Translations under genes and position numbers: made by a program | Source: Chrysopilus asiliformis | Taxonomy: Eukaryota > Arthropoda > Insecta > Diptera > Rhagionidae | NCBI GenBank assembly: GCA_964034945.1 | Contig: OZ035961.1 | Span: 87,500,124-87,564,123 of the forward strand | Direction: 5' to 3' | Length of the DNA: 64,000 nucleotides | Notes under the pieces: generated by a model | Databases searched by the model: none | Told to the model about the DNA's origin: nothing | Seen by the model: the letters and a program-made list of their open reading frames with translations, nothing else | In this document: positions 31,861-50,206 of the stretch, one piece after another | How positions within the stretch are numbered: position 1 is the stretch's first letter | How the letters are laid out: every line of letters starts with the position of its first letter

Positions 31861-31886
31861 TGCACTCAGCGCGTTATCTCTTTTTT

Positions 31887-32062
31887 TTATACCCGTATGG
31901 TGAAACCAAAGGGTATATTAACTTTGCCTTACCGTTTGTAACGCCAAGATCCCGTCATCGCACAAAAAAATTAATTACACCAGTGTGTTTAGAATGATAA
32001 AAATATTTAATTTCTGCGTGTCCGTCCGTCTGTCTGTCCGTCTGTCTGTCCGTCTGTCTGTC

Positions 32063-32097
<35 letters not shown>

Positions 32098-32486
32098 CTG
32101 TGGCGCGGATTGCGGGCGCACGGATTGAGCTAGAGACTTGAAATTTTTCGCAGATTCGTTTTTCGTAAAATGCGAGGCTAAGTTCGTTAATGGGCAAAAA
32201 TGGACCATTAGGGGGGGTACCCCCCATACGAACGAAAACGTTTTTTGCGAATATCTCAAAAACGGTGTATCTTACTAAAAAAGTGCTAGAACAAAAGTTA
32301 TTTAGAATATGATTCTACATAAAACTCCCATACATCAAAATCCGATTGGAATAAATTTTAAAAAATCTTATTGGAAAGTTTGACTTCAAAGTGGAATTTT
32401 GGTACAACTGTTCCAATTTTGATACGAATATCACCATACGGGTCTCCAATGATTGCCAGATTGGCAATTATAGCTTTTGTTATGTT
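31887..32486 (-). mobile_element. Mini-me-like element, copy 4
   Basis: A complete reversed copy. On the plus strand it runs TTATACCCGTATGGTGAAAC, GGGTATATTAA, CCGTTTGTAACGCC, a TTCTAAACACACTGG-complement block, a GTCY microsatellite (about 32020-32100), GATTGCGGGCGCACGGATTG, TTGAAATTTTTCGCAGATTC, the palindrome GGGGGGTACCCCCC near 32210, and ends with GCTTTTGTTATGTTT. It is very similar to copy 6 at 38993-39572, indicating fairly recent activity. Confidence 0.85.
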
Positions 32487-32487
32487 T

Positions 32488-32701
32488 ATACATGGATGAT
32501 TCTCCTAGAGACCTATTGAACCATGTTTTACACGATTTATACCGTGTATTTCGGAAAACCTATCTCCTCTTATAGTTCTTTATTTCATAAAAAACTAACA
32601 TTAGGTACTCGTGCACTTTATCGTGCTGCCACTTTTTTTTATACATGGATTGGCTCCCATTAAGGATTACTGGACCATGTTTTATACGGTTTATACCGTG
32701 T
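32488..32701. repeat. Diverged direct repeat of about 60 bp
   Basis: 32488-32548 and 32641-32701 share ATACATGGAT, a middle TACTGGACCATGTTTTA-like block and TTTATACCGTGT, with scattered differences. They lie just 3' (in the minus sense) of the zinc-finger ORF that ends at 32702. They could be the end structure of the element or gene that contained that ORF. Confidence 0.5.
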
Positions 32702-33725
32702 CTACCATTTAGGATCATTAAATCTTATGGTTTGGAAAGACAAAGGATTGCATATAAAGCCAACGTTATCAGTTAAATTTTCGTTGTCCCTGAAGCTCGA
32801 CAAACAGCTAGAATGATAGATCCCAATTTTACAAAATGGGATTTGACATTCAACTGTTGAACCGAGTTGCTTTTCTTCGTTGTTTCGGCACACACAATGT
32901 CGTTCGCATAATGCATCTTCGCTATGCTTCCTTGCCATGTGGCGTTTATATGACCCGTACTCGACAAACACTAATTTGCATTTTATACAATTTAGTCTTG
33001 TGAGTGTTATATACTTTGGCGGCTTTAGTTTTTTTGGGGCAATTGCAGTACACTCATGATTTAAAAACATTGTCGTGTTAGGAAAATGTTTGTCGCATGA
33101 ATGACACATTCTTTGTATAGTGTGTTCGGCGTTTATGTGTATGTGTAACACACGCACATCTTTATTGCAGATATTGCATTTTTCTGTTGTAGGGTGAAAT
33201 TTTTTACAATGCAAATGCAAACTGGTGCGGAATGAAAAATTCTTCGAGCAATACTTGCAACTCCACTTCTTTGCTATACTATGTGCAGCTTTCATGTGTC
33301 TCAGAACTTCTGCTTTTCGTATAAATGCCTTTCCGCATATTTCACACTTATATTTTTCTTTATGTATTGCCATATGTCTCCGCAACACGTTTATTGTCTT
33401 AAACTTTTTATCACAAACCCTCACATATAACTTCATTTCCTTGACACTTGTGTGTACCTTTAATGTGACGAGTTAAAGCTGATTTCCGAACATAGCATTT
33501 ATCGCATTGATTACATTTGAACTTCTTTCTTTGCGATGTGTTGTTATTGGTGACACAACGTGAAGTGCTAGGTTGATTTTCATGTTCTACATTATTTGTA
33601 GACATGTCATCAGATCCGTCATTTTGTGACAAATCATCAAAATCAAGCATTTCATCGAAGCACTCTTGGAGACCTTGTATTTCCGGAATCTCCATATTTA
33701 AAAGCTGTAACGGAAAATTAACCAT
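32702..33725 (-). pseudogene. C2H2 zinc-finger protein with PHD-like C-terminus, one-base frameshift
   Basis: The minus-strand frame starts at ATG 33725. About 60 residues are acidic and serine/asparagine-rich, followed by a first C2H2 finger (KCNQCDK...HIKGTH). One extra base in the CCC run at 33418-33420 breaks the frame inside finger two. The second frame (33436-32702) continues with about five more C2H2-type fingers and one weaker one. The last 60 residues carry C-x-C, C-x4-C, H-x2-C and a final C, spaced like a PHD finger that lacks its eighth ligand. C2H2 fingers normally bind DNA, but the target is unknown. The start overlaps the end of the upstream frame (33718-33720). Codon texture is good, so the break may be recent or a sequence error. 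It may be a host gene or part of a mobile element; I do not recognise the family. Confidence 0.65.
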
Positions 33726-33890
33726 AATCAGACATTTTGTCGAATAAAATGGTTTTTATGATATTGTTTAAAATCATATCAAAATGTGTCATACAATTAT
33801 TTGTTTGTATCACATCTTTCCATCTCGGAGTGTTTTTAATAAATTTATTTATATTTTGCGTATAATTATATAGCACAGATTTACTATTTA

Positions 33891-34895
33891 AACATAACAA
33901 AAGCTATAATTGTCAATCTGGCAATTATTGAAAACCCGTATGGTGATATTCGTATCAAAATTCGAACAGTTGTACCAAAATTCCACTTTGAAGTCAAAAT
34001 TTCCAATAAGAATTTTTAAAATTTATTCCAATCGGATTTTGATGTATGGGAGTTTTATGTAGAATCATATCCTTGGACTTTTTTGATAAGATGCACCGTT
34101 GTTCTTGGACTTTTTTGATAAGATGCACCGTTTTTGAGATATTCACAAAAAACGATTTCGTTCGTATGGGGCAGAGCTGGGCAAAATACTCAATACTCAA
34201 GTATCAGTACCAGTATATGGTAATGATACTTTTAACCGCATTTCAGTATCAGTACAAAGAGTACTGGTACTGAGATTTCAGTACCAGTAAATTTTGTACT
34301 GGTATTGCTCTGACTGAGCAGTACAAAAATACCAACATCGTTACTGGTACTGAAACTCCAGTACCAGTGCTATGTACTTGAAAAATATCAGTACTTTCGC
34401 GAAAAATACTTGAAAAAATTCCAGTACTTTTGCAAAAGTACTTGAAAAAGTATAAAAGTACTGGTACTGCAAAACTCAAAACCAGTACAAAAAGTACTGG
34501 TACTGCAAAAACCAATACCAGTACAAAAAGTACTGGTATTGCAAAAAACCAGTACAAAAATACAAATATTGTAAAAAACCAGTACCAGTACTTTTTGTAC
34601 TGGGAGTGGATCCGTGCATCGATTACAAGTACTTCAAGTACTGGTACTGATCGTGCAGTACCAATACTTAAGGTATTGATACTGGTGGCAAGCCCAGTAC
34701 AAGTATCTATGTACTGGTACTGCTCGTGTACTGCAGTATCAAATGTACTGAAGTATGCCCAGCTCTGGTATGGGGGGTACCCCCCCTAATGGTCCGTTTT
34801 TGCCCATTAACGAACTTAGCCTCGCATTTTACGAAAAAAGGATCTGCGCAAAAATTCAAGTCTCTAGCTCAATCCGTGCGCCTGCAATCCGCGCC

Positions 34896-34928
<33 letters not shown>

Positions 34929-34935
34929 TGGACGG

Positions 34936-34966
<31 letters not shown>

Positions 34967-35106
34967 GATGGACATGGAAAAATCAATTTTTTTTATCATT
35001 CTAAACACACTGGTGTAATTCATTTTTGTGTGTGATGACGGGATCTTGGCGTTACAAACGGTAAAGCAAAGTTAATATACCCTTTGGTTTCACCATACGG
35101 GTATAA
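33891..35106 (+). mobile_element. Mini-me-like element, copy 5, split by a MITE
   Basis: Left part 33891-34171 (AACATAACAAAAGC head, GATTTTGATGTATGGGAG, a small local duplication of TTGGACTTTTTTGATAAGAT at 34074-34131). Right part 34768-35106 (GGTACCCCCCC, TTGCCCATTAACGAACTTAG, GACR microsatellite 34903-34974, CACCATACGGGTATAA). A hAT-type MITE sits exactly in the GGGGGGTACCCCCC palindrome. The element itself lies inside the unrecognised minus-strand coding sequence. Confidence 0.85.
34172..34767. mobile_element. hAT-type MITE with 8-bp target duplication
   Basis: The ends are CAGAGCTGGGCAAAATACT and, reverse-complemented, CAGAGCTGGGCATACTT. The 8-bp sequence GTATGGGG flanks both sides (34164-34171 and 34768-34775). 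Removing the element and one duplication restores the sequence found uninterrupted at 44907. The interior is built from many copies of the self-complementary word AGTACTGGTACT in both orientations. The 8-bp duplication and the CAGAG-type end indicate the hAT superfamily. There is no transposase; open frames here (34249-34557 -, 34430-34789 +) are products of the repeat. Confidence 0.9.
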
Positions 35107-35349
35107 AAACATTGGTAGTGTACCTACAATGATATCGTGCATAACTGACGTTATTTTATACATTGTATTATTCACTGTTTTTGTACTAGTATCAATATCC
35201 AACATCAGACTATTTTGATGATTGCAAGACACACAATTTTCAATTTGTGCCTTCAATTCATCTATAATTTTATCGCAATAAGCATTCAGAGATAGCCATT
35301 CAGCAATATTTTCCTGAATATTGATTGGTAACTCATAATGATCTAGAAT

Positions 35350-35363
35350 ATTAAAATCTATAT
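35350..35363. repeat. Target-site duplication, left copy
   Basis: ATTAAAATCTATAT here and at 38348-38361 flank the 307-bp array. The last few bases may overlap the element ends, so the true duplication is 10-14 bp. Confidence 0.8.
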
Positions 35364-35443
35364 ATGAAATGTACTTGTTTCCTTGGGTTACTCGGTCATC
35401 GAATTAAACTAATTAATCCTTTTTAGAACATTTTTATTGAATG

Positions 35444-35484
35444 CCTCAACGTTTCGCCTACTGTCGTCAGGCTTCTTCAGGAGG
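35444..35484 (-). ncRNA. Hammerhead-ribozyme-like core, left-arm copy
   Basis: Same motif as 36353-36393 but on the minus strand, in the first unit of the left arm; a second copy lies at 35751-35791. The third left-arm unit is cut off at its centre-facing end and keeps only the GAGG/CGTT side. Confidence 0.55.
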
Positions 35485-36352
35485 ACTTTTATTAATTAAT
35501 AAGAAAAAACGAAAAAAAAGTACAAAATGTACACATGTATCACTTTTTCACCAATAAATAAATAAAACAATGAAATTCCTCTAATGTGCTCATATGATGG
35601 TGTGATGAGTCCAGTATTCACCCACTGGTTGTTGTAATCCATTCTTTAAAGCTCGACCGTTGATCAATTTATGAAATGTACTTGTTTCCTTGGGTTACTC
35701 GGTCATCGAATTAAACTAATTAATCCTTTTTAGAACATTTTTATTGAATGCCTCAACGTTTCGCCTACTGTCGTCAGGCTTCTTCAGGAGGACTTTTATT
35801 AATTAATAAGAAAAAACGAAAAAAAAGTACAAAATGTACACATGTATCACTTTTTCACCAATAAATAAATAAAACAATGAAATTCCTCTAATGTGCTCAT
35901 ATGATGGTGTGATGAGTCCAGTATTCACCCACTGGTTGTTGTAATCCATTCTTTAAAGCTCGACCGTTGATCAATTTATGAAATGTACTTGTTTCCTTGG
36001 GTTACTCGGTCATCGAATTAAACTAATTAATCCTTTTTAGAACATTTTTATTGAATGCCTCAACGACAGTAGGCGAAACGTTGAGGCATTCAATAAAAAT
36101 GTTCTAAAAAGGATTAATTAGTTTAATTCGATGACCGAGTAACCCAAGGAAACAAGTACATTTCATAAATTGATCAACGGTCGAGCTTTAAAGAATGGAT
36201 TACAACAACCAGTGGGTGAATACTGGACTCATCACACCATCATATGAGCACATTAGAGGAATTTCATTGTTTTATTTATTTATTGGTGAAAAAGTGATAC
36301 ATGTGTACATTTTGTACTTTTTTTTCGTTTTTTCTTATTAATTAATAAAAGT

Positions 36353-36393
36353 CCTCCTGAAGAAGCCTGACGACAGTAGGCGAAACGTTGAGG
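36353..36393 (+). ncRNA. Hammerhead-ribozyme-like core (type I layout), representative copy
   Basis: The order is CCTC (stem I), CTGAAGA (core box 1), an extra A, GCCT - nine-base loop - AGGC (stem II), GAAA (core box 2), CGT with stem III reduced to the self-complementary ACGT, T as the cleavage-site base, then GAGG pairing with CCTC (stem I). A very short self-complementary stem III is typical of hammerheads thought to work as dimers, as in newt and cricket satellites and Penelope-like elements. The extra A after box 1 departs from the consensus and could weaken or abolish activity. The same motif recurs every 307 bp (36660, 36967, 37274, 37581, 37888, 38195) on the plus strand. Folding and cleavage are predicted, not shown. 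Confidence 0.55.
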
Positions 36394-38486
36394 CATTCAA
36401 TAAAAATGTTCTAAAAAGGATTAATTAGTTTAATTCGATGACCGAGTAACCCAAGGAAACAAGTACATTTCATAAATTGATCAACGGTCGAGCTTTAAAG
36501 AATGGATTACAACAACCAGTGGGTGAATACTGGACTCATCACACCATCATATGAGCACATTAGAGGAATTTCATTGTTTTATTTATTTATTGGTGAAAAA
36601 GTGATACATGTGTACATTTTGTACTTTTTTTTCGTTTTTTCTTATTAATTAATAAAAGTCCTCCTGAAGAAGCCTGACGACAGTAGGCGAAACGTTGAGG
36701 CATTCAATAAAAATGTTCTAAAAAGGATTAATTAGTTTAATTCGATGACCGAGTAACCCAAGGAAACAAGTACATTTCATAAATTGATCAACGGTCGAGC
36801 TTTAAAGAATGGATTACAACAACCAGTGGGTGAATACTGGACTCATCACACCATCATATGAGCACATTAGAGGAATTTCATTGTTTTATTTATTTATTGG
36901 TGAAAAAGTGATACATGTGTACATTTTGTACTTTTTTTTCGTTTTTTCTTATTAATTAATAAAAGTCCTCCTGAAGAAGCCTGACGACAGTAGGCGAAAC
37001 GTTGAGGCATTCAATAAAAATGTTCTAAAAAGGATTAATTAGTTTAATTCGATGACCGAGTAACCCAAGGAAACAAGTACATTTCATAAATTGATCAACG
37101 GTCGAGCTTTAAAGAATGGATTACAACAACCAGTGGGTGAATACTGGACTCATCACACCATCATATGAGCACATTAGAGGAATTTCATTGTTTTATTTAT
37201 TTATTGGTGAAAAAGTGATACATGTGTACATTTTGTACTTTTTTTTCGTTTTTTCTTATTAATTAATAAAAGTCCTCCTGAAGAAGCCTGACGACAGTAG
37301 GCGAAACGTTGAGGCATTCAATAAAAATGTTCTAAAAAGGATTAATTAGTTTAATTCGATGACCGAGTAACCCAAGGAAACAAGTACATTTCATAAATTG
37401 ATCAACGGTCGAGCTTTAAAGAATGGATTACAACAACCAGTGGGTGAATACTGGACTCATCACACCATCATATGAGCACATTAGAGGAATTTCATTGTTT
37501 TATTTATTTATTGGTGAAAAAGTGATACATGTGTACATTTTGTACTTTTTTTTCGTTTTTTCTTATTAATTAATAAAAGTCCTCCTGAAGAAGCCTGACG
37601 ACAGTAGGCGAAACGTTGAGGCATTCAATAAAAATGTTCTAAAAAGGATTAATTAGTTTAATTCGATGACCGAGTAACCCAAGGAAACAAGTACATTTCA
37701 TAAATTGATCAACGGTCGAGCTTTAAAGAATGGATTACAACAACCAGTGGGTGAATACTGGACTCATCACACCATCATATGAGCACATTAGAGGAATTTC
37801 ATTGTTTTATTTATTTATTGGTGAAAAAGTGATACATGTGTACATTTTGTACTTTTTTTTCGTTTTTTCTTATTAATTAATAAAAGTCCTCCTGAAGAAG
37901 CCTGACGACAGTAGGCGAAACGTTGAGGCATTCAATAAAAATGTTCTAAAAAGGATTAATTAGTTTAATTCGATGACCGAGTAACCCAAGGAAACAAGTA
38001 CATTTCATAAATTGATCAACGGTCGAGCTTTAAAGAATGGATTACAACAACCAGTGGGTGAATACTGGACTCATCACACCATCATATGAGCACATTAGAG
38101 GAATTTCATTGTTTTATTTATTTATTGGTGAAAAAGTGATACATGTGTACATTTTGTACTTTTTTTTCGTTTTTTCTTATTAATTAATAAAAGTCCTCCT
38201 GAAGAAGCCTGACGACAGTAGGCGAAACGTTGAGGCATTCAATAAAAATGTTCTAAAAAGGATTAATTAGTTTAATTCGATGACCGAGTAACCCAAGGAA
38301 ACAAGTACATTTCATAAATTGATCAACGGTCGAGCTTTAAAGAATGGATTAAAATCTATATCAATATCTTCTATTTCCTCATGTATCAAAAGATTTGAGT
38401 TTTGAAATAGAATCACCAATTCTTGAGAATATTGCTTGGCAAAATCTACCGAGGTAATTGAGGGTTTATCACCTTTAAACTTTAAA

Positions 38487-38535
38487 AATAAATCTTCAAT
38501 ACCATCATTGTTACAGATGGTATTGAAGATTTATT
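38487..38535. repeat. Perfect 20-bp inverted duplication with 9-bp spacer
   Basis: AATAAATCTTCAATACCATC at 38487-38506 is mirrored exactly at 38516-38535. It sits at the point where the unrecognised minus-strand coding sequence changes frame. It looks like a snap-back (templated) insertion that broke the frame. Confidence 0.85.
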
Positions 38536-38992
38536 AAGTCTGTTTTCATACTTCCAAACATATCAATGTACACAATGATGGCATTTATGAAGTTCATTAA
38601 TTTTTTAAATAATGGTGAATCCTTTAGTTTCTCGCGGATTGAACATAAAATGACGTAATCATCATCATCTTTGGTCACCGTTTTCGAACATTTCAATGAA
38701 GTAGAATATATAATTCTAATCACTTCTGAAATGTCCTCATACATAGATAAAACTACATCCAACCCCTCGCGTTGCTCTGTGGGGAATTTCGACACACGTA
38801 ATTTTAGTACCGTCAATACGTCTTTGTTAAATAACGGATTACAACGGCCGCTCTTATATCCTGAAGTTTTCAGTATCGGAATTTCCACTTGGTAGCACAA
38901 TTTCAGTCTTAGCCGACGATATGTATTTTTTTTGTTCTAACTTCTTAATCACACTTAGATAACTTCTTAATCACATTTTTATTTATCACTTT

Positions 38993-39572
38993 TTATACCC
39001 GTATGGTGAAACCAAAGGGTATATTAACTTTGCCTTACCGTTTGTAACGCCAAGATCCCGTCATCGCACAAAAAAATGAATTACACCAGTGTGTTTAGAA
39101 TGATGAAAAAAGTTGAATTTAGCATGTCCGTCCGTCTGTCCGTCTGTCCGTTCGTCTGTCCGTCCGTCTGTCCGTCCGTCTGTCCGTCTGTCTGTCTGTG
39201 GCGCGGATTGCGGACGCACGGATTGAGCTAGAGACTTGAAATTTTTCGCAGATTCGTTTTTCGTAAAATGCGAGGCTAAGTTCGTTAATGGGCAAAAATG
39301 GACCATTAGGGGGGGTACCCCCCATACGAACGAAAATGTTTTTTGCGAATATCTCAAAAACGGTGCATCTTATCAAAAAAGTGCAAGAACAAAAGTTATT
39401 TAGAATATTATTCTACATAAAACTCGCATACATCAAAATCCGATTGGAACAAGTTTTAAAAAAATCTTATTGGAAAATTTGAATTCAAATGAAATTTTGA
39501 TACGCCGTTCAATTAAATCACCATACGGGTTTTCAATAATTGCCAGATTGGCAATTATAGCTTTTGTTATGT
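38993..39572 (-). mobile_element. Mini-me-like element, copy 6
   Basis: A complete reversed copy, nearly collinear with copy 4: TTATACCCGTATGGTGAAAC at the left, GTCY microsatellite about 39126-39199, GGGGGGTACCCCCC at about 39310, and GCTTTTGTTATGTTT at the right. The last part differs slightly from copy 4 (a deletion around 39495). Confidence 0.85.
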
Positions 39573-39649
39573 TTCTGCATTCGCGTTTTATTCTCCAATT
39601 CGGAATCAATTTTAAAAGAAAGCCCGTCCTAAGACAGGTGACTTCAACC

Positions 39650-40081
39650 TTGATAGGAGTTCCGTGAGATCTCAGGCGAATATCGATTCGACGACTCTCC
39701 AACTTCATCGCTAGAAGGTCAAATTGAAAATCTATCGAATCGAGCACGGAATAATCTTAGGATTAGCTGTAATTCCAGTTTTCATCCAATGTTGTATGAA
39801 AGCTGTACAGGTATCCCTTGAGTTACGCGGTACTTGACTTACGCGGTACTTGACTTACGCGGTACTTGATAGGGGTTCCGTGAGATCTCAGGCGAATATC
39901 GATTCGACGACTTTCCAACTTCATCGCTAGAAGGTCAAATTGAAAATCTATCGAATCGAGCACGGAATAATCTTAGGATTAGCTGTAATTCCAGTTTTCA
40001 TCCAATGTTGTATGAAAGCTGTACAGGTATTCCTTGAGTTACGCGGTACTTGACTTACGTGGTATTTGCGTTACGCGGTAC
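39650..40081. repeat. 216-bp tandem duplication carrying a pogo-like end
   Basis: The segment beginning CTTGATAGG is repeated with a 216-bp offset (GTTCCGTGAGATCTCAGG at about 39660 and 39876; ACAGGTAT at 39807 and 40023). Each copy contains CAGGTATCCCTTGAGTTACG followed by 15-bp repeats of GTACTTGACTTACGCG. Between the copies only a few bases differ. Confidence 0.8.
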
Positions 40082-40154
40082 TTGAGTTACGCGGTACTTG
40101 ACTTCCGCGGTACTTGACTTCCGCGGTACTTGACTTACGCGGTACTTGACTTAC
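39808..40154. repeat. 15-bp repeats ACTTGACTTACGCGGT
   Basis: About a dozen near-exact 15-bp units lie in two clusters, 39824-39866 and 40040-40154, and resume at 40502-40545 after an inserted MITE. With the CAGGTATCCCTTGAG ends, they look like subterminal repeats of a pogo/Tigger-type element. Confidence 0.75.
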
Positions 40155-40545: not shown

Positions 40546-41707
40546 GATTTGATTTCAATTTTTTGAGCTTTCTTATTTTTTAGACAAATTTTCATCATGG
40601 AATCAGACAACCTCACTCATGAATACTTAAAACTCGTGAAAAACATCGGCTGAGCAATTACTTTAAGAAATTCGAACACATTTTTCATCTGGACCGAACA
40701 AATTCGCGTTTTTAAAGGCGGTTATCCAGACTTTCCATGCCATGATTTAAGAAAACTACAAACCCAATACTTTTGGCGTGCAAATACAATGCTTTCAGTG
40801 TTCCAGAACTGATATTCGGAAATGTTTCTAAGGAATTTGTTCCAACTACTGTAGATTCAAACCAAAGAAACGAATTTTATTACACCACCTGGAATTCAAA
40901 TATTAAAATGTTTCAACACCTCATCAAAATTTGGTGCGAAAACTCAACAGAGAAAGTTTTATTGGATTTAGCGATTTCAAAATCGTATCAATGAGCGATT
41001 ATTCAAAATATTCCAATATGGGGAAAATTCAGAATGTTCCTGGAAACCACTTTGCTGCAATTAAAGTTTCCCAGTGAAAAATTAATAAGGCCTTATCCAT
41101 AAGCTGGTCATAAGCAGGTAAATGGAGATATACAACATTAACATGCGGGAAAAAGATAGGGGATTTTAGCAAATACACGGGAGGTGGAGATTCAAACCAT
41201 CACAAACATTTGATCCAAGATCCAAACCTCCAAGTCGGGAACTTTTAGTGTGACATTTCATTCCTGTCACAAATTCACACCAACTGGAAGGGAGACCGAG
41301 ATTTTCAAGGTAAAGTTGTTCTTTTATTAAAAATACTTAAGTTAATAGCGTTAAAAACCGAGAAAATGTGTTTTCACAATATGGACCAAATATGACGAAA
41401 TAAATTTTAGTTCGTGTTCGCCAAAAGGCTTCAGGAAAACAGATTTTCTTTATGTGACCAATTCTCGAAAAAAAAGAGACCGACTATTGCCGTTCGCTGT
41501 GCATTCTTCGCTGTGCCAATGCCGAGAAATCACCCTTAAATTTTATTCCCTTTGAACAACTGTGTTGCCGTTTATCCGAAAAAGGGTTTTAAGAACGAAT
41601 TTGAACTTAGTCCCCGTTGAATAACTGTGTTGTCGTTTACCAAAAATAAAACAATAGTAAAAATATCGAACAAATTTTAATTTTGGGGTATATAATTTAA
41701 AGTTTTT
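40546..41707 (+). other. Region upstream of the retrotransposon frame
   Basis: No LTR could be paired with sequence downstream of 47258, and no convincing primer-binding site was seen. A diverged direct repeat at 41547-41580 and 41611-41644 (TTGAACAACTGTGTTGCCGT and TTGAATAACTGTGTTGTCGT) lies in the leader. Part of this stretch should be the 5' untranslated region of the element. Confidence 0.4.
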
Positions 41708-44405
41708 TTGAAAATGCCACAGTTGATTGATGATTTGGGAGTTGTCGAACTCCGTTATTTTCTACGGAAGAAAGGATTATCGACTACCGGAAATAAAAAC
41801 GAACTTATAGAACGTCTTACCGAAGCTGTCGGAGGAGGTGAAATTCCAGACGAAGCATGCAGCATGGACGAAATTACCGACCTTCGAGCCGAAGTCACCA
41901 ATATGAAGACGACGCTAGAGCAAATTTTGGGCACGCTAAGGACTCGAAACAACGCTGTTGCGACCCAACCCGCGAATGTACCATCACCAGGTCAAGGGCA
42001 ATCTTCGTCTAATACCGAAAGTCGAACAACAACGCCGAATATTCGTGATATTGCTGAGGTGCTGCCGATGTTTGACCCTTCTTATCGTTCGCAGTTGACA
42101 TCAAGACAATTTGTCGATCGCGTTGAAGCGCTTATGATGACATACAAGTGGTCCGATCAAGCGGTCATGTTAGCCGTACAGACGCGTCTGAGAGGACATG
42201 CTAAAGATTGGTGTGACAGTTTACCTACCGTTCACGAGAATTGGTTGTCGTTTTCCCGTCACCTGCTAAAGGATTTTCCCGTGATGGAATCAGAAGCAGA
42301 CGTTCATATTGCAATGATGTCCACCTTTCGGAAACCTACCGAAAAAGTTGAAGACTATATTTACCGAATGTGGTCCATGGGACGAAAAGGGGGTTTGACA
42401 AATGACTCTATAGTGCGATATATTCGAAACGGTATGAAACACTCGTCGCTACAAATCGCGATTTCCGGTGTAACGGTTAAGGATCCGAATGAATTACTCG
42501 CCGTCGTGCATAGATCCGAACCTCAACGCCGTCCTCGGTGTACAAAATGTCAGAAATCCGGACATTTGGCTGACAAATGTCCAAATGTTGCTGGAACCAG
42601 CCGAGATTCGAATGTACGAGGAATCGTCGAAACCCAGAACGGGAGTGATATGACAAAGCAAATTATCCTCGGCCAAAAGCAAACTGTCGCATTGATGGAC
42701 ACCGGTAGTGAAAAATCTCTAATTCGAAAGTCATTCGCTCAAAATTTGAATTCGGAAAGTTGCCGTCCCGTAAATTTGCGAGGATTCGCCGGAGGATCTT
42801 TTGTGGCCGATTCGAAGGTTTGCTGCGAACTTCAGATGGACGAAATCCGCAATCAAGTGGAGTTGCTGATTGTGCCGGACGAACTCTTGTCAGAGTCGGT
42901 GTTGGTGGGCCAGGATATTCTTTGCAAGAAGGACACGCGTCTCGTAGTCGAGTCTGGAATATGCCGTATCGAAACAGCTGACAAAGACATCGTTTGTGGA
43001 GAGAATTTGACTAAGCGGCAGCAGGATAGCGTTCATGATCTCATTGCAAAATATCGAGGTTCTTTTGCGTGTAATATCGGAGAATTAGGATGTCATAAAA
43101 CCGCTGAAATGAAAATTACCTTAACTTCCGACAAACCGATTTTTCGACCGCCATATCGGATTCCGTTCCCGAAAAGAGACAGAGTGAGTCAGGTTTTACG
43201 TGAGCTCGCGGAGAACGATATAATTCGCCCCAGTGTGTCGCCATACGCGTTCCCGTATGTGATGGTTCGCAAACCATCGGGAGAAGACCGGTTTTGCGTG
43301 GATTTCCGGGAATTGAATGCAATCACCGTCACTGTACCGTTTGTGATGCCGGTCGTCGAGGAACAGCTCGCAATGCTGTCCGGAAACAATTACTTCACGA
43401 TTTTGGATTTACAGTCGGGGTATCATCAAATTCGACTCGCCGAAGACTCGAAACATTTAACCGCTTTCGTGACTCATGAAGGGCAGTTCGAATACAACCG
43501 AGTCCCGTTTGGACTTAAAAACGCGCCGGCCGAGTTCCAACATACAATGAATGAGCTGATTGACCAAATGCCAAGAGGACAAGCCTTTCCGTATATTGAT
43601 GACGTAATCATCGTCAGCAAAACCTTTGAGGAAGGTTTACAACGACTGGAGCGGTTTCTGCAGATCGTAAAGTTGTCCGGACTAACTCTCAAGTTAACCA
43701 AATGTAGGTTTTTGGTGGAGGAGGCAGTATTCTTGGGTCACCGTATTCATCAAGACACGATAAAACCAGGTTTGGACAAAACCAAAGCAATTCGAGACTT
43801 CGCAAAACCCGAAAACGTACATGAGGTCCGCAGATTTCTGGGTCTCACTGGATTTTTCAGAAAGTTCATTGAGAACTACGCAACTATCGCAAAACCGTTG
43901 ACGCACCTACTAAAGACGAATCCACCGACTAAGTTTGAATGGGGTCCCAAACAAGATGAATCCTTTGAATTATTGAAACAAAAACTGTGCACCGAACCGA
44001 TCCTAGTCATGTACGACACGAATTGTGAACATGAGGTTCACACAGACGCTAGCTCCGTGGGCCTGGCAGGAGTCTTACTACAGAAAAGTGGTAATGAGTT
44101 AAATCCTGTATGTTATTTCAGCCGCACATGTAGTATTCCCGAAAGCTCATACCACAGCTATGAGTTGGAGGTCCTCGCTATTGTTGAATCGGTCGAACGA
44201 TTTCGTATGTATTTGCTGGGAAAGAAGTTTCGCATTGTCACCGATTGCGCTGCCGTCACCGCGCCGAAGCTGTCAAAGCCGTTGATACCACGAATTGCTA
44301 GATGGTTTTTAAAACTGCAAGAGTATCAGTTCGAGATTGTACATCGATCGTCAGACAAACTAAAGCATGCAGATGCACTTAGCCGTTGTCCGGTAGAACC
44401 ACCAT
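41708..44405 (+). CDS. Gag-pol, 5' portion (SAP, gag, zinc knuckle, protease, RT, RNase H)
   Basis: This encodes the structural and copying functions of the retrotransposon. Residues 4-42 form a SAP-type helix-extension-helix (GVVELRYFLRKKGL...GNKNELIERL), a DNA/RNA-binding fold unusual at a gag N-terminus. A coiled-coil-like stretch follows (55-80). The gag core comes next, then a CCHC zinc knuckle (C278, C281, H286, C291). The aspartic protease motif DTGS is at 331-334. Reverse transcriptase has the FPYIDD box (YIDD 629-632) and RNase H has TDAS with D780. The frame runs to about residue 899, where a hAT-type element interrupts it before the integrase; extra residues beyond 44405 come from the inserted element, and a stop follows at 44485. 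The start is the first ATG after a leader without longer frames. The lineage within Ty3/gypsy (possibly mdg3- or Mag-related) is uncertain. Confidence 0.85.
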
Positions 44406-44645
44406 TAGAGCATTCAATCCCGGGTACCCGAAACCCGGGTACCCGGGAATCCCGGCCATTTTCTGGAACCGAAAACCGGGTTTGAATTGGGTAAAATTAC
44501 CCGGTTTTCGGTGCTGAAAGCAAGCAATTTCTTACTTGCTAAAATATCAAAATACTGTTCGTTCGCTGCTGAATATATACGAAATACATATTTGTAAGTA
44601 CATATTTCTGTTAATAATAACTGTAAATTAAAAGATTAATGCAAA

Positions 44646-45031
44646 AACATAACAAAAGCTATAATTGCCAATCTGGCAATCATTGGAGACCCGTATGATG
44701 ATATTCGTATCAAAATTCGAACAGTTGTACCAAAATTCCAATTTGAAGTCAAACTTTCCTATAAGATTTTTTAAAACTTCTTCCAATAGAATTTTGATGT
44801 ATGGGAGTTTTATGTAGAATCATATCCTAAACAACTTTTGTTCTTGGACTTTTTTGATAAGATGTACCGTTTTTGAGATATTCGCAAAAAACGTTTTCGT
44901 TCGTATGGGGGGTACCCCCCCCTAATGGACCATTTTTGCCCATGAACGAACTTAGCCTCGCATTTTACGAAAAACAGATCTGCGCAAAATTTCAAGCCTC
45001 TAGCTCAATCCGTGCGCCTGCAATCCGCGCC

Positions 45032-45064
<33 letters not shown>

Positions 45065-45397
45065 TGGACGGACAGACGGACAGACAGACGGACAGACAGA
45101 CGGACAGACAGACGGACAGACAGACAGACGGACAGACAGACGGACAGACAGACGGACAGACAGACGGACAGACAGACAGACGGACAGACAGACGGACAGA
45201 CAGACGGACAGACAGACGGACAGACAGACGGACAGACAGACGGACAGACAGACGGACGGACATGCAAAATTCAACTTTTTTTTTTATCATTCTAAACACA
45301 CTGGTGTAATTCATTTTTGTGTGTGATGACGGGATCTTGGCGTTACAAACGGTAAGGCAAAGTTAATATACCCTTTGGTTTCACCATACGGGTATAA
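44646..45397 (+). mobile_element. Mini-me-like element, copy 7 (reference copy)
   Basis: Order: AACATAACAAAAGCTATAAT head; GATTTTGATGTATGGGAG; TTTTTTGATAAGATGTACCG; palindrome GGGGGGTACCCCCC; TTGCCCATGAACGAACTTAG; TTTCAAGCCTCTAGCTCAAT; CCGTGCGCCTGCAATCCGCG; a long GACR microsatellite; TTCTAAACACACTGGTGTAA; ATGACGGGATCTTGGCGTTA; ACGGTAAGGCAAAGTTAATA; and CACCATACGGGTATAA. Dipteran mini-me elements carry a GTCY microsatellite next to a conserved core with CCGTTTGTAACG, which matches this layout on the other strand. It has no coding capacity and no clear target duplication. Seven copies of varying age are in the window. Confidence 0.8.
45032..45262. repeat. Long GACA/GACG (GTCY) microsatellite
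   Basis: About 230 bases of GACA and GACG tetramers without interruption except one GATG near 45064, the longest such run in the window. All reading frames stay open through it (SVCLSVCL- or TDRRTDRQ-like), which produces false ORFs on both strands. Confidence 0.95.
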
Positions 45398-45870
45398 TTA
45401 AGCCACCCGATTACATTTTCTTTACAAAGTCTCTTTAAAACAACGACAATATAATATATTTATATGCGCTCACAGAAAGTATTAAATTTCCTGTAAAGTT
45501 AAAATGGTTTTTTTTATGTATAGGCAGGGAACAACTATTATATAGAATGGAAAATAAGAATTTTCCTCATTAACTTCCACTAGAGTAAGCACTACACTAT
45601 AGAAATTGGTTTTGTCATACACTCGATGAAAAAAATCAAATATGATGTGCCACAGAGTAATTCAAAAGGTGAATTTTTCAACTGTAATTTTCGGATGTAC
45701 GCTTCCAACGCAAAAAATTTTGTAATTTCTTATTTTTTTTTTGGTAATTTCTTATTTTTTTTTTACATTCTCAGCACCGGTTCCAGAACCGGGTACCCGG
45801 TTCTCGAAGATTCTAGCACCGAAACCCGGTTCCTTAAAATTGTCTCGGTGCTGAATGCTATAACCACCAT

Positions 45871-47258
45871 GTGACGTCTCTATTGTTTCGGAGACCATCA
45901 TGCGCGTCGAGGTGGATTCCGAGGACTGGATAGTTTCCATGCAACTTCAGGATAAAGATTTACAACAAATTATGCGATCGTTAAAAGGGGAAATCGTCCA
46001 CGAACAGTCTGTCAATTGGAAAAAGGAATACATCCTAAAGGAAGGCCGATTATTCCGCCGATGTGGTTGCTCTACATTATTGGTCGTACCAAAACCCGTA
46101 CGATGGCGCATTGCAAAACTGTGCCATGATGACGTTGGCCACTTTGGGCTAGAAAAAACCGTAAGTCGAATACTACAACACTTTTGGTTCGCCAGAATGA
46201 GAAATTATTTGAAATCGTACTTGTCATCATGCCTAGAATGCTGCTACAACAAAGCCGTTTCCGGAAAACCAGAGGGCCAACTACATATCGCCGAGACGAC
46301 ACCAATGCCGTTTGTTGACCTTCATATCGATCATCTGGGTCCATTCCCGAGGAGCCGCCAAGGGAATTGTTATGTGCTGGGAATATGTGACGCTTTTACA
46401 AAATACATCATCGTTAGAGCCGTCAAAACCACAAAAACGCAACCTGTAATCAAAGCCCTGAACGAATTGTCAGCGTTCTTTGGTTTGCCGCAACGTATTA
46501 TATCCGACCGGGGTACCGCATTTACTGCGAAACAATTCGAGGAATATTGTAAAGAGTATGGTATCCAACACATCAAAACAGCTGTCCGAACGCCAAGAGC
46601 GAACGGACAAATCGAACGACTAAATGGTTCAATTTCAACTTACTTGCGTACGAGTACCGAACATTCAAAAGACTGGGACACAAATCTCCATGGTCTTCAA
46701 TGGTCATTAAACACCCAGATAAACAGTACTACCGGATTTAGCCCGAACGCATTAGTTTTTGACTTCCGCCTGCGAGACGTCACCCATAATCGTCTCGCCC
46801 AAGCATTGCACGACGACTTCCCGGAAGAGATGTATCTAAACCAGCGGCGAGCGGACGCACTGTCCCGTATTCAACTTGCCAGGGAAAAATGGAAGGAGAG
46901 ATTTGATAAGCAACACAAATCACCTCACGTATATACTCCCGGAGACCTAGTAGTTATCGAAAGTGTTCCGGCCGCTACAGGCGAATCGAGAAAATTAGAA
47001 CCCAAGTACAAAGGTCCCTATATTGTCAACCGGGCCATCGGAAACGATCGCTACCTTGTAGAAGACATCGATGACGTCCAGAGGAAGAGTCGAAGGTTCA
47101 GTTCTATTTATGAAGCCTCTAAACTGAAGCCCTGGTGTCCGTTATATCCGGATTTGGAAGAGGCCATCCTCGAGCCTGAAACAGTCGAAATGTCCGAGGC
47201 GGACATTTGCCAGGAAGGGCCGAGCTGTCACGCTGGCAATGATGGCAGCGAGGCCTAA
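45871..47258 (+). CDS. Gag-pol, 3' portion (integrase)
   Basis: This continues the same reading frame after the insertion. Counting from the ATG at 45900, the zinc-binding H76-x4-H81-x29-C111-x2-C114 module is followed by the catalytic triad D144, D203 and E239 (exactly 35 residues between the second D and the E). A conserved RANGQIERLN context surrounds the glutamate. A C-terminal GPYIVNRAIG-type segment and a YEASKLKPW motif follow, then an acidic tail ending in TAA at 47256-47258. Integrase inserts the DNA copy into the host genome. As the DNA stands, this part could only be made from an internal start or from RNA in which the insertion is removed. No stops or shifts are seen within it. 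Confidence 0.85.
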
Positions 47259-48408: not shown

Positions 48409-50206
48409 TTAATCAACATTAAAATCATTACAATTTAATTTCTTAATACGAATTTTCCGACTTTGTTCAAATTCATCCGGATGAAGTCTTCTTTTGTGCT
48501 CGTGTAAACTTGAATCCCAAGTAAATGATTTTGGACAATACGGGCAACTATGCAATTTTTCACCAGTGTGAGTTGTTAAATGCCCCTAAAATGAAGAAAT
48601 TTGTTAAATCAATTAAAATAAAAAATGTGTGCTCCAAACCGTTAAATTCAACTTCCTTTTGAATGCTTTATCGCACATTGTACACTTAAATTTATAACCA
48701 GCGGTGTGTACTTGTCTTATGTGTAAATTTAAGTTCCGTTTAAACTTGAATTTACGTTCGCAGATGCTGCAACTATATTCGCTTTTTTCAGTGTGGGTTT
48801 GCATGTGAAATTTAAATCCTGTCCGAGATTTGAACTCGGCCCCACAAATTCTGCATTTCAGTTCGGGATGCGTGATTCCTGCATGCTCCATTTGATGTAT
48901 AGCAAATTCGCGTTTGCCTGGTATTATTTTTGCGCAAATTTCGCACATTTTCGCGTAGACATGTTCATGTACGTATCGCTGGTGATGTCGTAACAAGCTT
49001 TGAGAACCAAATCTACAAAAAATTATGCTTTAAGAATCAACAACTAATCAAAATTGCAATTGAATTTACGATTTTTTACACTCGTCACAACAGAATTCTC
49101 TCTGATCCTCTGGGATGTGGGTAAGTTTATGTCGTGAAAGTAGAGTTTGTGTGTGAAATTCTTTTGTACATTCATCACACTTAAATGGTTTTACTCTTGT
49201 TCCCGAGTGGTTTTCTATATGTTTATGGAAGTACCACTTACTCTTAAATATTTTACCACATTCTTCGCATCTAAAAGGCAATGAAAAGTTAAACCATTTG
49301 TTAAACCTGCTGAAAATTTTGTGAATTACTTCAAACCGTCCGGGTTTATGTGCTGCTCGATGTGATTTAAAAAATACCATCTATCTGAGAATTTTTTTTT
49401 GCAACACATCACATAGCCTTTTGAATTGTGAATTGTTTCATAGTGTTTTTTAACATCAGCAAATGTCTCCGCCTCGTACTCACATTGCTCACATTTTAAT
49501 TTCATAAAGGCTGCAATTTTCGCGTCTTTTTCATCCTTAATGTTATCTGATAAATGTAATTGCGCTTTGCTTGGACACTGTGAGTCCTCAATATCACAAC
49601 TTTCATTTTCAATTTGTTTTTTTAGTTGGCTATTTGGTGATGTGATTTTAAAATTAGTCGTAATATTATCTTGATTTTCTATACTTGGACTTGTTGAAGA
49701 GTTGGTCAAATTCTTTGCAGCTGTTTCCGGTACGTCTTCTTTAAGAAAAAAAAAATACTTTCAAGGGAATAAAAACTGCTAAAATTTTACCTGTTTTTAT
49801 TACTGCAAGGGGAATTAAAGATTTCATGTAGTTCTCTTGATTGTCATCAAATTCTTCAGCTAAATTATCTTCGGGTTCTATTTTAATTTCTCCAACAGAA
49901 AAGTACTCTACTGCTGGTGTTGAAAAATTATTTTGAGCCTCACCTATTCGCAAATAAAACGAGTGGAAATTATCGATCTGTTGCCAGCAATCAAAGCAGA
50001 TACTAGTTGACATGGGATCATCTTCTTTGGGCTGACAAATTAAAAAAAAATGTTTTGATTTAAAAGCACAATAATTAATAAAACATTGGCAAGTTTACTT
50101 CGAACCAAAAATGCTGTGCAACAATATTTGCGATATTTAGTTCTTTCCCATCGAATCCAAACATTCCCATGGAGTTTAAGGAATCGAGAAAACACACCCG
50201 ACACAT
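48409..50206 (-). CDS. ZAD plus C2H2 zinc-finger transcription factor, six exons (grauzone-like)
   Basis: Exons on the minus strand: 50206-50099, 50031-49791, 49738-49330, 49270-49070, 49012-48640, 48585-48409. Every intron (52-67 bp) has GT/AG borders and the phases agree, giving 502 residues. Exon 1 opens with MCRVC and exon 2 supplies CFDC, together the four zinc-binding cysteines of a ZAD dimerisation domain (residues 2 to about 65). An acidic linker follows, then about ten C2H2 fingers from residue 200 to near the C-terminus; TGEK-type linkers are few. The finger layout, with a GYVMCCKKKF...H-x3-H finger followed by INPDGLKCEEC, resembles Drosophila Grauzone and relatives. Such proteins are nuclear DNA-binding regulators, often active in germline or early development. 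It looks intact. The ATG was chosen because it precedes the first ZAD cysteine directly. The target and exact orthology are unknown. Confidence 0.88.

What the first reader, a model, noticed from the sequence alone, without database searches (positions are those of the whole stretch)
35364..38347. Head-to-head 307-bp array with a hammerhead-ribozyme-like core in nine units
Seen: exact 307-bp periodicity, two arms in opposite orientation, and in every complete unit the order CCTC, CTGAAGA, a GCCT/AGGC hairpin, GAAA, CGTT, GAGG, with CCTC and GAGG able to pair. Known: type I hammerheads with tiny stem III occur in Penelope-like elements and in satellites of newts, schistosomes and cave crickets. 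Inferred: this may be a dipteran hammerhead-bearing satellite or a Penelope-type terminal-repeat multimer. The stem III sequence ACGT is self-complementary, which suits a dimeric ribozyme formed between neighbouring units. One extra A after CTGAAGA deviates from the consensus.
Basis: partly seen in the sequence, partly recalled or inferred. Interest (0 to 1): 0.92.

Follow-up and report, generated by a model that had tools for sequence, protein, structure and literature searches.

The report
Retrotransposed array of spliced Penelope RNA
A 3-kb head-to-head array in an animal genome repeats a 307-base unit that equals a Penelope retrotransposon lacking two segments, each missing exactly between splice-site sequences, so a spliced, ribozyme-bearing RNA, probably a circle, was likely copied back into the chromosome by the Penelope enzyme, which suggests how tiny ribozyme retroelements may be born.

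Summary
In detail: two exact head-to-head arms (703 and 2289 bp) with nine identical hammerhead cores. A 14-bp target-site duplication bounds the array, so it is an insertion, not a satellite. The host genome explains the unit: it is the terminal repeat (pLTR) of a resident Penelope-like element (PLE) whose intact 845-aa ORF lies elsewhere. Against genomic PLEs the unit lacks a 59-nt pLTR intron (GTAAGT...TTGGCAG) and nearly the whole ORF (GAAT|GTATGG...TTTCACAG|TTC); neither junction has microhomology and both are exactly GT...AG. The array therefore most likely derives from doubly spliced sense RNA. Its ends fall in the two zones (79-97 and 113-129 nt past the predicted ribozyme cut) where all 44 other ends that I measured fall, the known PLE tail signature. 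The hammerhead is the minimal PLE type; its extra nucleotide is usual in this genome and its stems covary among PLE families, although no Rfam hammerhead model hits it. Best reading: a 307-nt circle from spliced PLE RNA was reverse transcribed for several laps from both nicked target strands. Splicing and insertion are read from sequence; circle, cleavage and enzyme action are inferred. A new variant: a newborn retrozyme-like element.

The parts
35350..35363 (.). Left copy of the 14-bp target-site duplication ATTAAAATCTATAT
38348..38361 (.). Right copy of the 14-bp target-site duplication
35363..36065 (-). Left arm, 2.3 units, sense strand is minus; outer end at unit position 84-85 (short PLE start site)
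   Evidence: exact match to the unit; compared with other copies
36063..38351 (+). Right arm, 7.5 units, sense strand is plus; outer end at unit position 116-120 (long PLE start site)
   Evidence: exact match to the unit; compared with other copies
36063..36065 (.). Head-to-head junction with 3 bp (ACG) shared by both arms; minus arm starts 1-4 nt and plus arm 17-20 nt upstream of the predicted cut
36390..36696 (+). One 307-bp unit, numbered from the predicted cleavage site (unit position 1 = 36390)
36353..36393 (+). First complete minimal hammerhead of the plus arm; predicted cut between 36389 and 36390; six more at +307 steps (CTGAAGA at 36664, 36971, 37278, 37585, 37892, 38199)
   Evidence: covariation with other PLE families
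35751..35791 (-). Complete minimal hammerhead of the minus arm
35444..35484 (-). Complete minimal hammerhead of the minus arm
36263..36343 (+). Exon 1 (81 nt, unit 181-261), starts right after the acceptor TTTCACAG of genomic PLEs
36344..36569 (+). Exon 2 (226 nt, unit 262-307 and 1-180), carries the hammerhead; ends right before the donor GTATGG of genomic PLEs
36502..36569 (+). Remnant of the PLE ORF start: ATG and 22 codons (MDYNNQWVNTGLITPSYEHIRG) plus 2 nt
36343..36344 (+). Exon 1-exon 2 junction where the 59-nt intron of genomic copies is absent
36262..36263 (+). ORF-skipping junction AGAGGAAT|TTCATTG, found only in this array

Best explanation
The array is one insertion, flanked by a target-site duplication, of a Penelope-like element (PLE) RNA that was likely spliced twice, probably released and closed as a 307-nt circle through its own predicted hammerhead ribozymes, and likely copied for several laps by the PLE reverse transcriptase. 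Shown by sequence: the unit equals a PLE terminal repeat plus the first 22 codons of its ORF; the pLTR intron and the rest of the ORF are absent, each exactly between GT and AG; the outer ends lie in the two PLE start zones and abut a TSD; the arms are head to head. Inferred: (1) a sense transcript of pLTR-ORF-pLTR is spliced over the ORF and over the 59-nt intron; (2) two hammerheads in one RNA pair through the self-complementary ACGU, cut at CGUU|GAGG and release 307 nt; (3) a host RNA ligase closes it; (4) the lone hammerhead of the circle has no partner, so the circle lasts; (5) PLE protein nicks both strands of an AT-rich target and from each 3' end starts on the circle at one of the two sites, running 2.3 and 7.5 laps; (6) the two cDNA ends join through 3 bp of microhomology inside the hammerhead.
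For: Zero mismatches in 9.7 units. 14-bp TSD; 7 of 5000 random pairs of places have 12 bp or more in like geometry. Resident PLE with intact 845-aa ORF, RVT_1 and conserved GIY-YIG residues. Both missing blocks lie exactly at GT...AG without microhomology; exons and downstream part identical to L076 over 242 nt; 20 of 37 alignment rows run through the intron, the rest start inside or after it or are partial; the spliced exon junction occurs in the 9 array units and one fragment only. Ends at 84-85 and 116-120 past the cut, in the two zones that hold 44 of 44 other measured ends (32 after dropping 5 of 37 rows, 12). One end of each kind in 11 of 12 other head-to-head loci. Same signature published for PLEs. 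Hammerhead stems covary.
Against: No RNA data: circle, splicing and cleavage are not observed. The donor (AAT|GTATGG) is weak. No copy with both donor and AG acceptor was found: the donor occurs in two copies whose acceptor reads CACTG, so the source copy is unseen. A microhomology deletion next to the same donor exists in L088. No Rfam hammerhead hit. The published lizard PLE hammerhead cut only with protein present and was not needed for insertion in vitro, and no RNA ends were found at its cut site. Two of five covariation measures did not stand out. The same circle could come from back-splicing. Two of 12 other head-to-head loci have no direct repeat and two only 7-8 bp. Copy number rests on one assembly.
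Confidence: 0.6

Rival explanations
1. Back-spliced circle: the spliceosome joins the donor in ORF codon 23 back to the acceptor at the start of the same pLTR and removes the 59-nt intron, giving the same 307-nt circle without ribozyme cleavage; PLE enzyme then copies it for several laps.
For: In one pLTR-ORF copy the order is acceptor, exon 1, intron, exon 2, donor, just what back-splicing needs, and the product is the same 307 nt. It needs no active ribozyme, and the hammerhead is unproven.
Against: It leaves the conserved, covarying hammerhead without a part in making the circle, and it needs a transcript that starts upstream of the acceptor. DNA sequence alone cannot tell it from the ribozyme route.
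Confidence: 0.22
2. Linear spliced multimer: a long transcript through many tandem PLE copies was spliced at each copy into a 307-nt-repeat RNA, which was reverse transcribed once, without any circle.
For: Partial tandem PLEs exist (L072, two pLTRs 2143 bp apart; other ORF pairs in tandem).
Against: It needs about eight identical tandem copies in one transcript; no such source was seen, and the units show no mismatch.
Confidence: 0.08
3. DNA-level origin: two deletions in a PLE followed by tandem amplification (unequal exchange or a DNA circle), that is, a young satellite.
For: A microhomology deletion beside the same donor exists in L088; L087 is another internally joined copy.
Against: Both array junctions are exactly GT...AG with no microhomology (about 0.0024 each from dinucleotide frequencies). 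TSD and PLE start sites at both outer ends mean that the array was inserted as a whole. No other locus with the ORF-skipping junction.
Confidence: 0.05
4. Single-primed insertion with twin priming or self-priming: one strand primes first and the inverted arm comes from fold-back or a second priming on the same or an antisense template, as proposed for rotifer Penelope.
For: Head-to-head order is the rule in this genome (12 of 12 opposite-strand neighbours within 6 kb, array included; 18 of 18 among the first 100 of 556 places; counted by eye). The array junction lies in the palindromic AACGTT stretch, and palindromes at such junctions are published.
Against: Both arms end at a PLE start site next to the TSD and both are spliced, so both were probably primed on sense RNA from target ends. 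An antisense template would not be spliced. This rival differs from the best reading only in the order of priming.
Confidence: 0.15

Closest known systems
Penelope-like elements with GIY-YIG endonuclease (PMC3846280 passages; PMC11167929 parts 1-2 of 4)
   Same: RT and GIY-YIG-like ORF elsewhere in the genome, pLTR, intron in the pLTR, minimal hammerhead, head-to-head inverted copies, two start sites about 31-36 nt apart (tail), TSD.
   Different: The array has no ORF and no intron, and repeats only the 307-nt spliced remainder 9.7 times.
Metazoan non-LTR retrozymes (PMC7229834, parts 1-4 of 6)
   Same: Short tandem repeats (170-400 nt) with a type I hammerhead, low GC (33% here), TSD longer than 4 bp, PLEs in the same genome, proposed circle and PLE mobilisation.
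   Different: Published invertebrate retrozymes carry canonical hammerheads with helix III; this one has the minimal PLE type, occurs at one locus only, can be read out of a resident PLE by splicing, and has two opposed arms.
Minimal hammerheads of PLEs said to cleave as dimers (Lunse et al. 2017, Cervera and de la Pena 2014: seen only as references and in passages of PMC6155905 and PMC7761336)
   Same: No stem III in the monomer, GAAACGU that can pair between two cores, PLE context.
   Different: An extra A or T between CUGANGA and stem II; whether those papers describe it I could not read.
Chrysanthemum chlorotic mottle viroid plus-strand hammerhead (PMC3705267 passage)
   Same: A natural hammerhead with an extra A. 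That it sits after A9, as here, is recalled.
   Different: A viroid ribozyme with normal stems; no relation implied.
Newt satellite hammerhead (PMC6155905 passage; PMC7229834)
   Same: Tandem repeats of about 330 bp, weak helix III, activity as dimer.
   Different: Dispersed satellite or retrozyme family; not a single spliced PLE insertion.

Membership tests
PLE insertion (non-autonomous derivative) | Sequence derived from a PLE with RT and GIY-YIG ORF | tested here: met
   Unit matches the pLTR and ORF start of a PLE with intact 845-aa ORF at C2:69821863-69824397; RVT_1; GIY-YIG residues conserved in alignment, though Pfam PF01541 itself did not hit.
PLE insertion (non-autonomous derivative) | TSD of about 8-15 bp | tested here: met
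   14 bp.
PLE insertion (non-autonomous derivative) | Outer ends at the two start sites (tail of about 30-40 bp) | tested here: met
   84-85 and 116-120 past the cut; 44 of 44 other measured ends at 79-97 or 113-129.
PLE insertion (non-autonomous derivative) | Own RT/EN ORF (autonomous element) | tested here: not met
   Only ATG and 22 codons remain; so it is not an autonomous PLE.
Metazoan non-LTR retrozyme | Tandem repeats of 170-400 nt with a type I hammerhead, low GC, TSD over 4 bp | tested here: met
   307 nt, 33% GC, 14-bp TSD.
Metazoan non-LTR retrozyme | Canonical hammerhead with helix III | tested here: not met
   GAA-ACGU-U leaves no loop for helix III in a monomer.
Metazoan non-LTR retrozyme | Dispersed multicopy family | tested here: not met
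   ORF-skipping junction only in this array, up to 2 mismatches.
Metazoan non-LTR retrozyme | Expressed as self-cleaved linear and circular RNA | not testable with these tools
   No RNA data at hand.
Minimal PLE hammerhead ribozyme | CUGANGA, stem II, GAAA, UH cut site, stem I | tested here: met
   With one extra nucleotide before stem II; invariant core in 8 aligned hammerheads, covarying stems.
Minimal PLE hammerhead ribozyme | Match to an Rfam hammerhead model | tested here: not met
   None at gathering score or E<=10.
Minimal PLE hammerhead ribozyme | Self-cleavage, as dimer | not testable with these tools
   Needs a cleavage assay.
Satellite DNA | Amplified in place by unequal exchange, many or dispersed arrays | tested here: not met
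   One array, TSD-bounded, both outer ends at PLE start sites.

The most novel reading that the evidence does not exclude
A retrozyme caught at birth: the spliceosome strips a Penelope element's own RNA of its ORF and intron, the leftover 307 nt closes into a ribozyme circle, and the Penelope enzyme copies that circle for many laps from both strands of one cut target. This would give retrozymes an origin in a single step, show that Penelope can use a spliced sense RNA as template, and give the dimer-only hammerhead a use as a switch that cuts multimers and spares monomer circles.
Probability: 0.5. Interest if true: 0.86.

Novelty: new variant of a known kind. Interest (0 to 1): 0.74.

Why it matters
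Two open points become testable. First, Penelope elements keep their introns, and an antisense or unspliced template was proposed for that reason and left open (PMC3846280, passages). Here is a Penelope insertion in which both arms come from what looks like a spliced, hence sense, RNA, each arm ending in a known start zone; that favours priming from both target strands on sense RNA over self-priming on antisense RNA. Second, retrozymes have been proposed to come from 'genome reduction' of PLEs (PMC11722881, passage); in the passages I saw no mechanism is given. Splicing is one, and here it can be read base by base. Nine literature searches, judged by titles and the starts of abstracts, listed no report of a Penelope insertion made from spliced RNA; that library lacks most subscription papers, among them the two main papers on PLE hammerheads.

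Tried and rejected
Rfam at gathering score on the window, at E<=10 on the array and on one core: no hammerhead. The sub-threshold MIR7993 hit is the hairpin of the head-to-head junction. Core pattern in viral contigs: 8 stretches, in prokaryote genomes: 31; the hammerhead descriptor run on these 39 loci found one weak fold, L029, judged chance; an exact piece of the unit gave none in viral contigs. C4:41901152, the only near match to the ORF-skipping junction, is a 21-bp coincidence. L088 looked like a second use of the donor but is an AAT-microhomology deletion. L087 has 4-6 nt that fit a second spliced template; too short to count. Satellite, DNA-deletion, linear-multimer and back-splicing readings are weighed under rivals. 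A search with the right flank, to look for an empty site or a repeated flank, was sent three times and never answered. Structure prediction and fold search were not run. The species was not identified.
Full report
1. The observation. The array is as described: period 307 bp, two arms of opposite orientation, nine identical hammerhead cores. Exact matching to one unit runs over 35363-36065 (minus strand, 703 bp) and 36063-38351 (plus strand, 2289 bp) without a mismatch; the arms share three bases, ACG, at the inversion. A 14-bp direct repeat, ATTAAAATCTATAT, stands at 35350-35363 and 38348-38361. Of 5000 random pairs of places in the window, 7 had a direct repeat of 12 bp or more in like geometry. 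The relaxed hammerhead descriptor gives no hit in the rest of the window and 0.01 per simulated window.

2. Where the unit comes from. The window lies in a genome of 429 Mb in 42 contigs. Matches to the unit elsewhere are partial; most of those examined run from upstream of the hammerhead to about 113-129 nt past its predicted cut, or only to about 79-94, and the part upstream of unit position 262 is offset by 53-62 bp. One place, C2:69821863-69824397, holds an intact 845-aa ORF between two such repeats. It has RVT_1. Of 589 related proteins the best 120 were listed; the named ones are from Musca, Eurosta, Lucilia, Drosophila virilis, Haematobia, Eupeodes and Episyrphus, all flies, and one beetle at rank 118. 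In an alignment with five of them, residues that I know from GIY-YIG endonucleases are invariant (Y753, G755, R764, H768, H785, E814). The Pfam GIY-YIG model itself did not hit this protein even at E<=10, but two of the aligned relatives carry it. So the repeats are pLTRs of a Penelope-like element. The genome holds many: 55 matches from the 54 candidates scored out of 1250, among them several families with ORFs over 800 aa.

3. Splicing. Against genomic pLTRs (L076, L072) the unit lacks one block, CTTATTAATT|GTAAGT...TTGGCAG|AATAAAAG (59 nt in L076), and keeps both sides exactly. It also lacks nearly all of the ORF and the 3' flank..CACATTAGAGGAAT|GTATGG... (as in L070) is joined to ...TTTCACAG|TTCATTG.. 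(as in L072, L076). The pieces that the unit shares with L076 are identical over 81, 46 and 115 nt. Neither junction can be slid by a base, so there is no microhomology, and both are GT...AG. With the window's dinucleotide frequencies (0.052 and 0.047) that is about 0.0024 per junction by chance. Exons of 81 and 226 nt make 307. Twenty of the 37 alignment rows run through the intron. A script that looked for the splice signals themselves found 18 such spans, 53-62 nt long. Genome-wide, the spliced exon 1-exon 2 junction with up to three mismatches occurs 10 times: nine array units and one fragment, L087. The ORF-skipping junction with up to two mismatches occurs in the nine array units and once as a 21-bp coincidence. 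Against this reading: the donor is weak. It was found in two copies whose acceptor reads CACTG, and a third near match (L088) is a deletion through an AAT repeat. An AG at the acceptor stands in 8 of the 43 pLTRs that matched (counted by eye). So a source copy with both sites was not found in this assembly.

4. Insertion by the PLE machinery. Counting from the predicted cut, the left end is at 84-85 and the right end at 116-120. Of 37 rows I dropped five: three reach the end of the reference and two are fragments. Of the other 32 ends, 11 lie at 79-94 and 21 at 113-129, none between. Two of the 21 belong to a tandem pair, L072. Six further head-to-head pairs gave 12 more ends, 6 at 81-97 and 6 at 114-128 (measured on the older copy L070, which is 2 nt longer here). 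Of the 12 head-to-head loci other than the array with both ends measured, 11 have one end of each kind and one, L091, has two short ends. Eight have direct repeats of 12-14 bp, two of 7-8 bp, two none. Opposite-strand neighbours within 6 kb are minus-left plus-right in 12 of 12 cases (array included) and in 18 of 18 among the first 100 of 556 places that one search lists (counted by eye). Among those listed cores no other same-strand neighbours lie closer than about 2 kb; the other 456 places were not shown. Published work gives the same picture. A lizard PLE starts reverse transcription 111-118 nt into its ORF, which is 85-92 nt after its hammerhead cut (my arithmetic), at two adjacent sites that define the tail of 30-40 bp; it cleaves and extends both target strands and prefers ATT (PMC11167929, parts 1 and 2 of 4). 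A rotifer Penelope has a 31-bp tail, head-to-head inverted pLTRs and TSDs of 8-10 bp (PMC3846280, passages). Against a need for the ribozyme: in the lizard system the hammerhead cut only with protein present, its loss did not stop insertion in vitro, and no RNA ends were seen at the cut.

5. The hammerhead. Ten stretches upstream of other PLE ORFs were fetched; nine hold a core at the matching place, one (L104) does not. Eight hammerheads, the unit and seven of the nine (L102 and L103 left out as repeats of L100 and L101), align with invariant core columns. Nine pairs were counted: 87.5% of cells paired against 62.6% in shuffles, 22 cells changed on both sides against 8.2, covariation 0.734 against 0.283, each reached by 0 of 500 shuffles; sliding the partners lowers all. 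Two measures did not stand out: pairs with a change on both sides (36 of 500 shuffles as high) and further pair types (379 of 500). Stem II is paired in 95% of cells, stem I in 78%. The structure was named by me from the unit, which favours it. The extra nucleotide is A or T at the same place in all nine and in the unit. Pattern counts over the genome: 69 with A (reversed control 0; array included, and a few without a good stem II), 556 with T (control 0), 37 without an extra base (control 5; letters not shown). Stem III as ACGU cannot fold in a monomer; two cores could share it. Rfam does not recognise it. In the predicted fold of the circle stem II forms with probability about 0.9 and stem I about 0.4.

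6. How it most likely works. See the best explanation. Firmest: an RNA origin by splicing and a PLE-type insertion. Likely: a circular template, because 2.3 and 7.5 laps are identical and no multimeric source was seen. Less sure: that the hammerheads and not back-splicing made the circle. The inversion falls within the hammerhead, one arm starting 1-4 nt and the other 17-20 nt upstream of the cut; that would fit run-off near a reopened circle, but it is one event only.

7. Known or new. PLE hammerheads, their dimer action, pLTR introns and retrozymes are known (PMC6155905 passages; PMC7229834 parts 1-4 of 6; PMC7761336 passages; PMC11722881 passages; PMC6466107 passages). A derivation of retrozymes from PLEs has been proposed. 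What nine searches did not list is a PLE insertion made from spliced RNA, or a retrozyme-like unit that can be read base by base out of a resident PLE. I therefore call it a new variant of a known kind.

Noticed in passing
window 35059-35358 (-) and 38514-38936 (-): The array sits between two open frames on the minus strand without a Pfam match above cutoff; possibly a broken gene or element.
   Followed up: partly
window 41696-44485 and 45864-47258 (+): Gypsy-like LTR retrotransposon: gag, protease, RT, RNase H with an N-terminal SAP domain, then an integrase-like ORF (by eye), with a GACAGACG-repeat insertion between them.
   Followed up: partly
window 32702-33472 (-) and 48613-49029 (-): C2H2 zinc-finger ORFs (the first confirmed by Pfam).
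   Followed up: no
window about 1542-1957, 31884-32493, 33876-35109, 38990-39463, 44631-45397: Several copies of an interspersed repeat, in both orientations, with a (GACAGACG)n microsatellite.
   Followed up: no
window 39649-40085: A 216-bp tandem dimer with a 16-bp sub-repeat CTTGACTTACGCGGTA.
   Followed up: no
G000, genome-wide: 556 further minimal hammerhead cores with an extra T and different stem II sequences in the 64 of 556 rows whose letters are shown.
   Followed up: partly
L105, L107 (upstream of other PLE ORFs): GTAAGT-like donors followed by AG shortly before the hammerhead (by eye): other PLE families here may have a pLTR intron too.
   Followed up: no
L087 (C2:18739182-18739358): A PLE ORF fragment joined to exon 2 with 4-6 nt of exon 1, as if from a template spliced at the pLTR intron.
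   Followed up: partly
L093 (C1:5441564-5441793): A small head-to-head pair whose inversion also falls within the hammerhead (arms start 19 and 4 nt upstream of the cut), much as in the array.
   Followed up: partly
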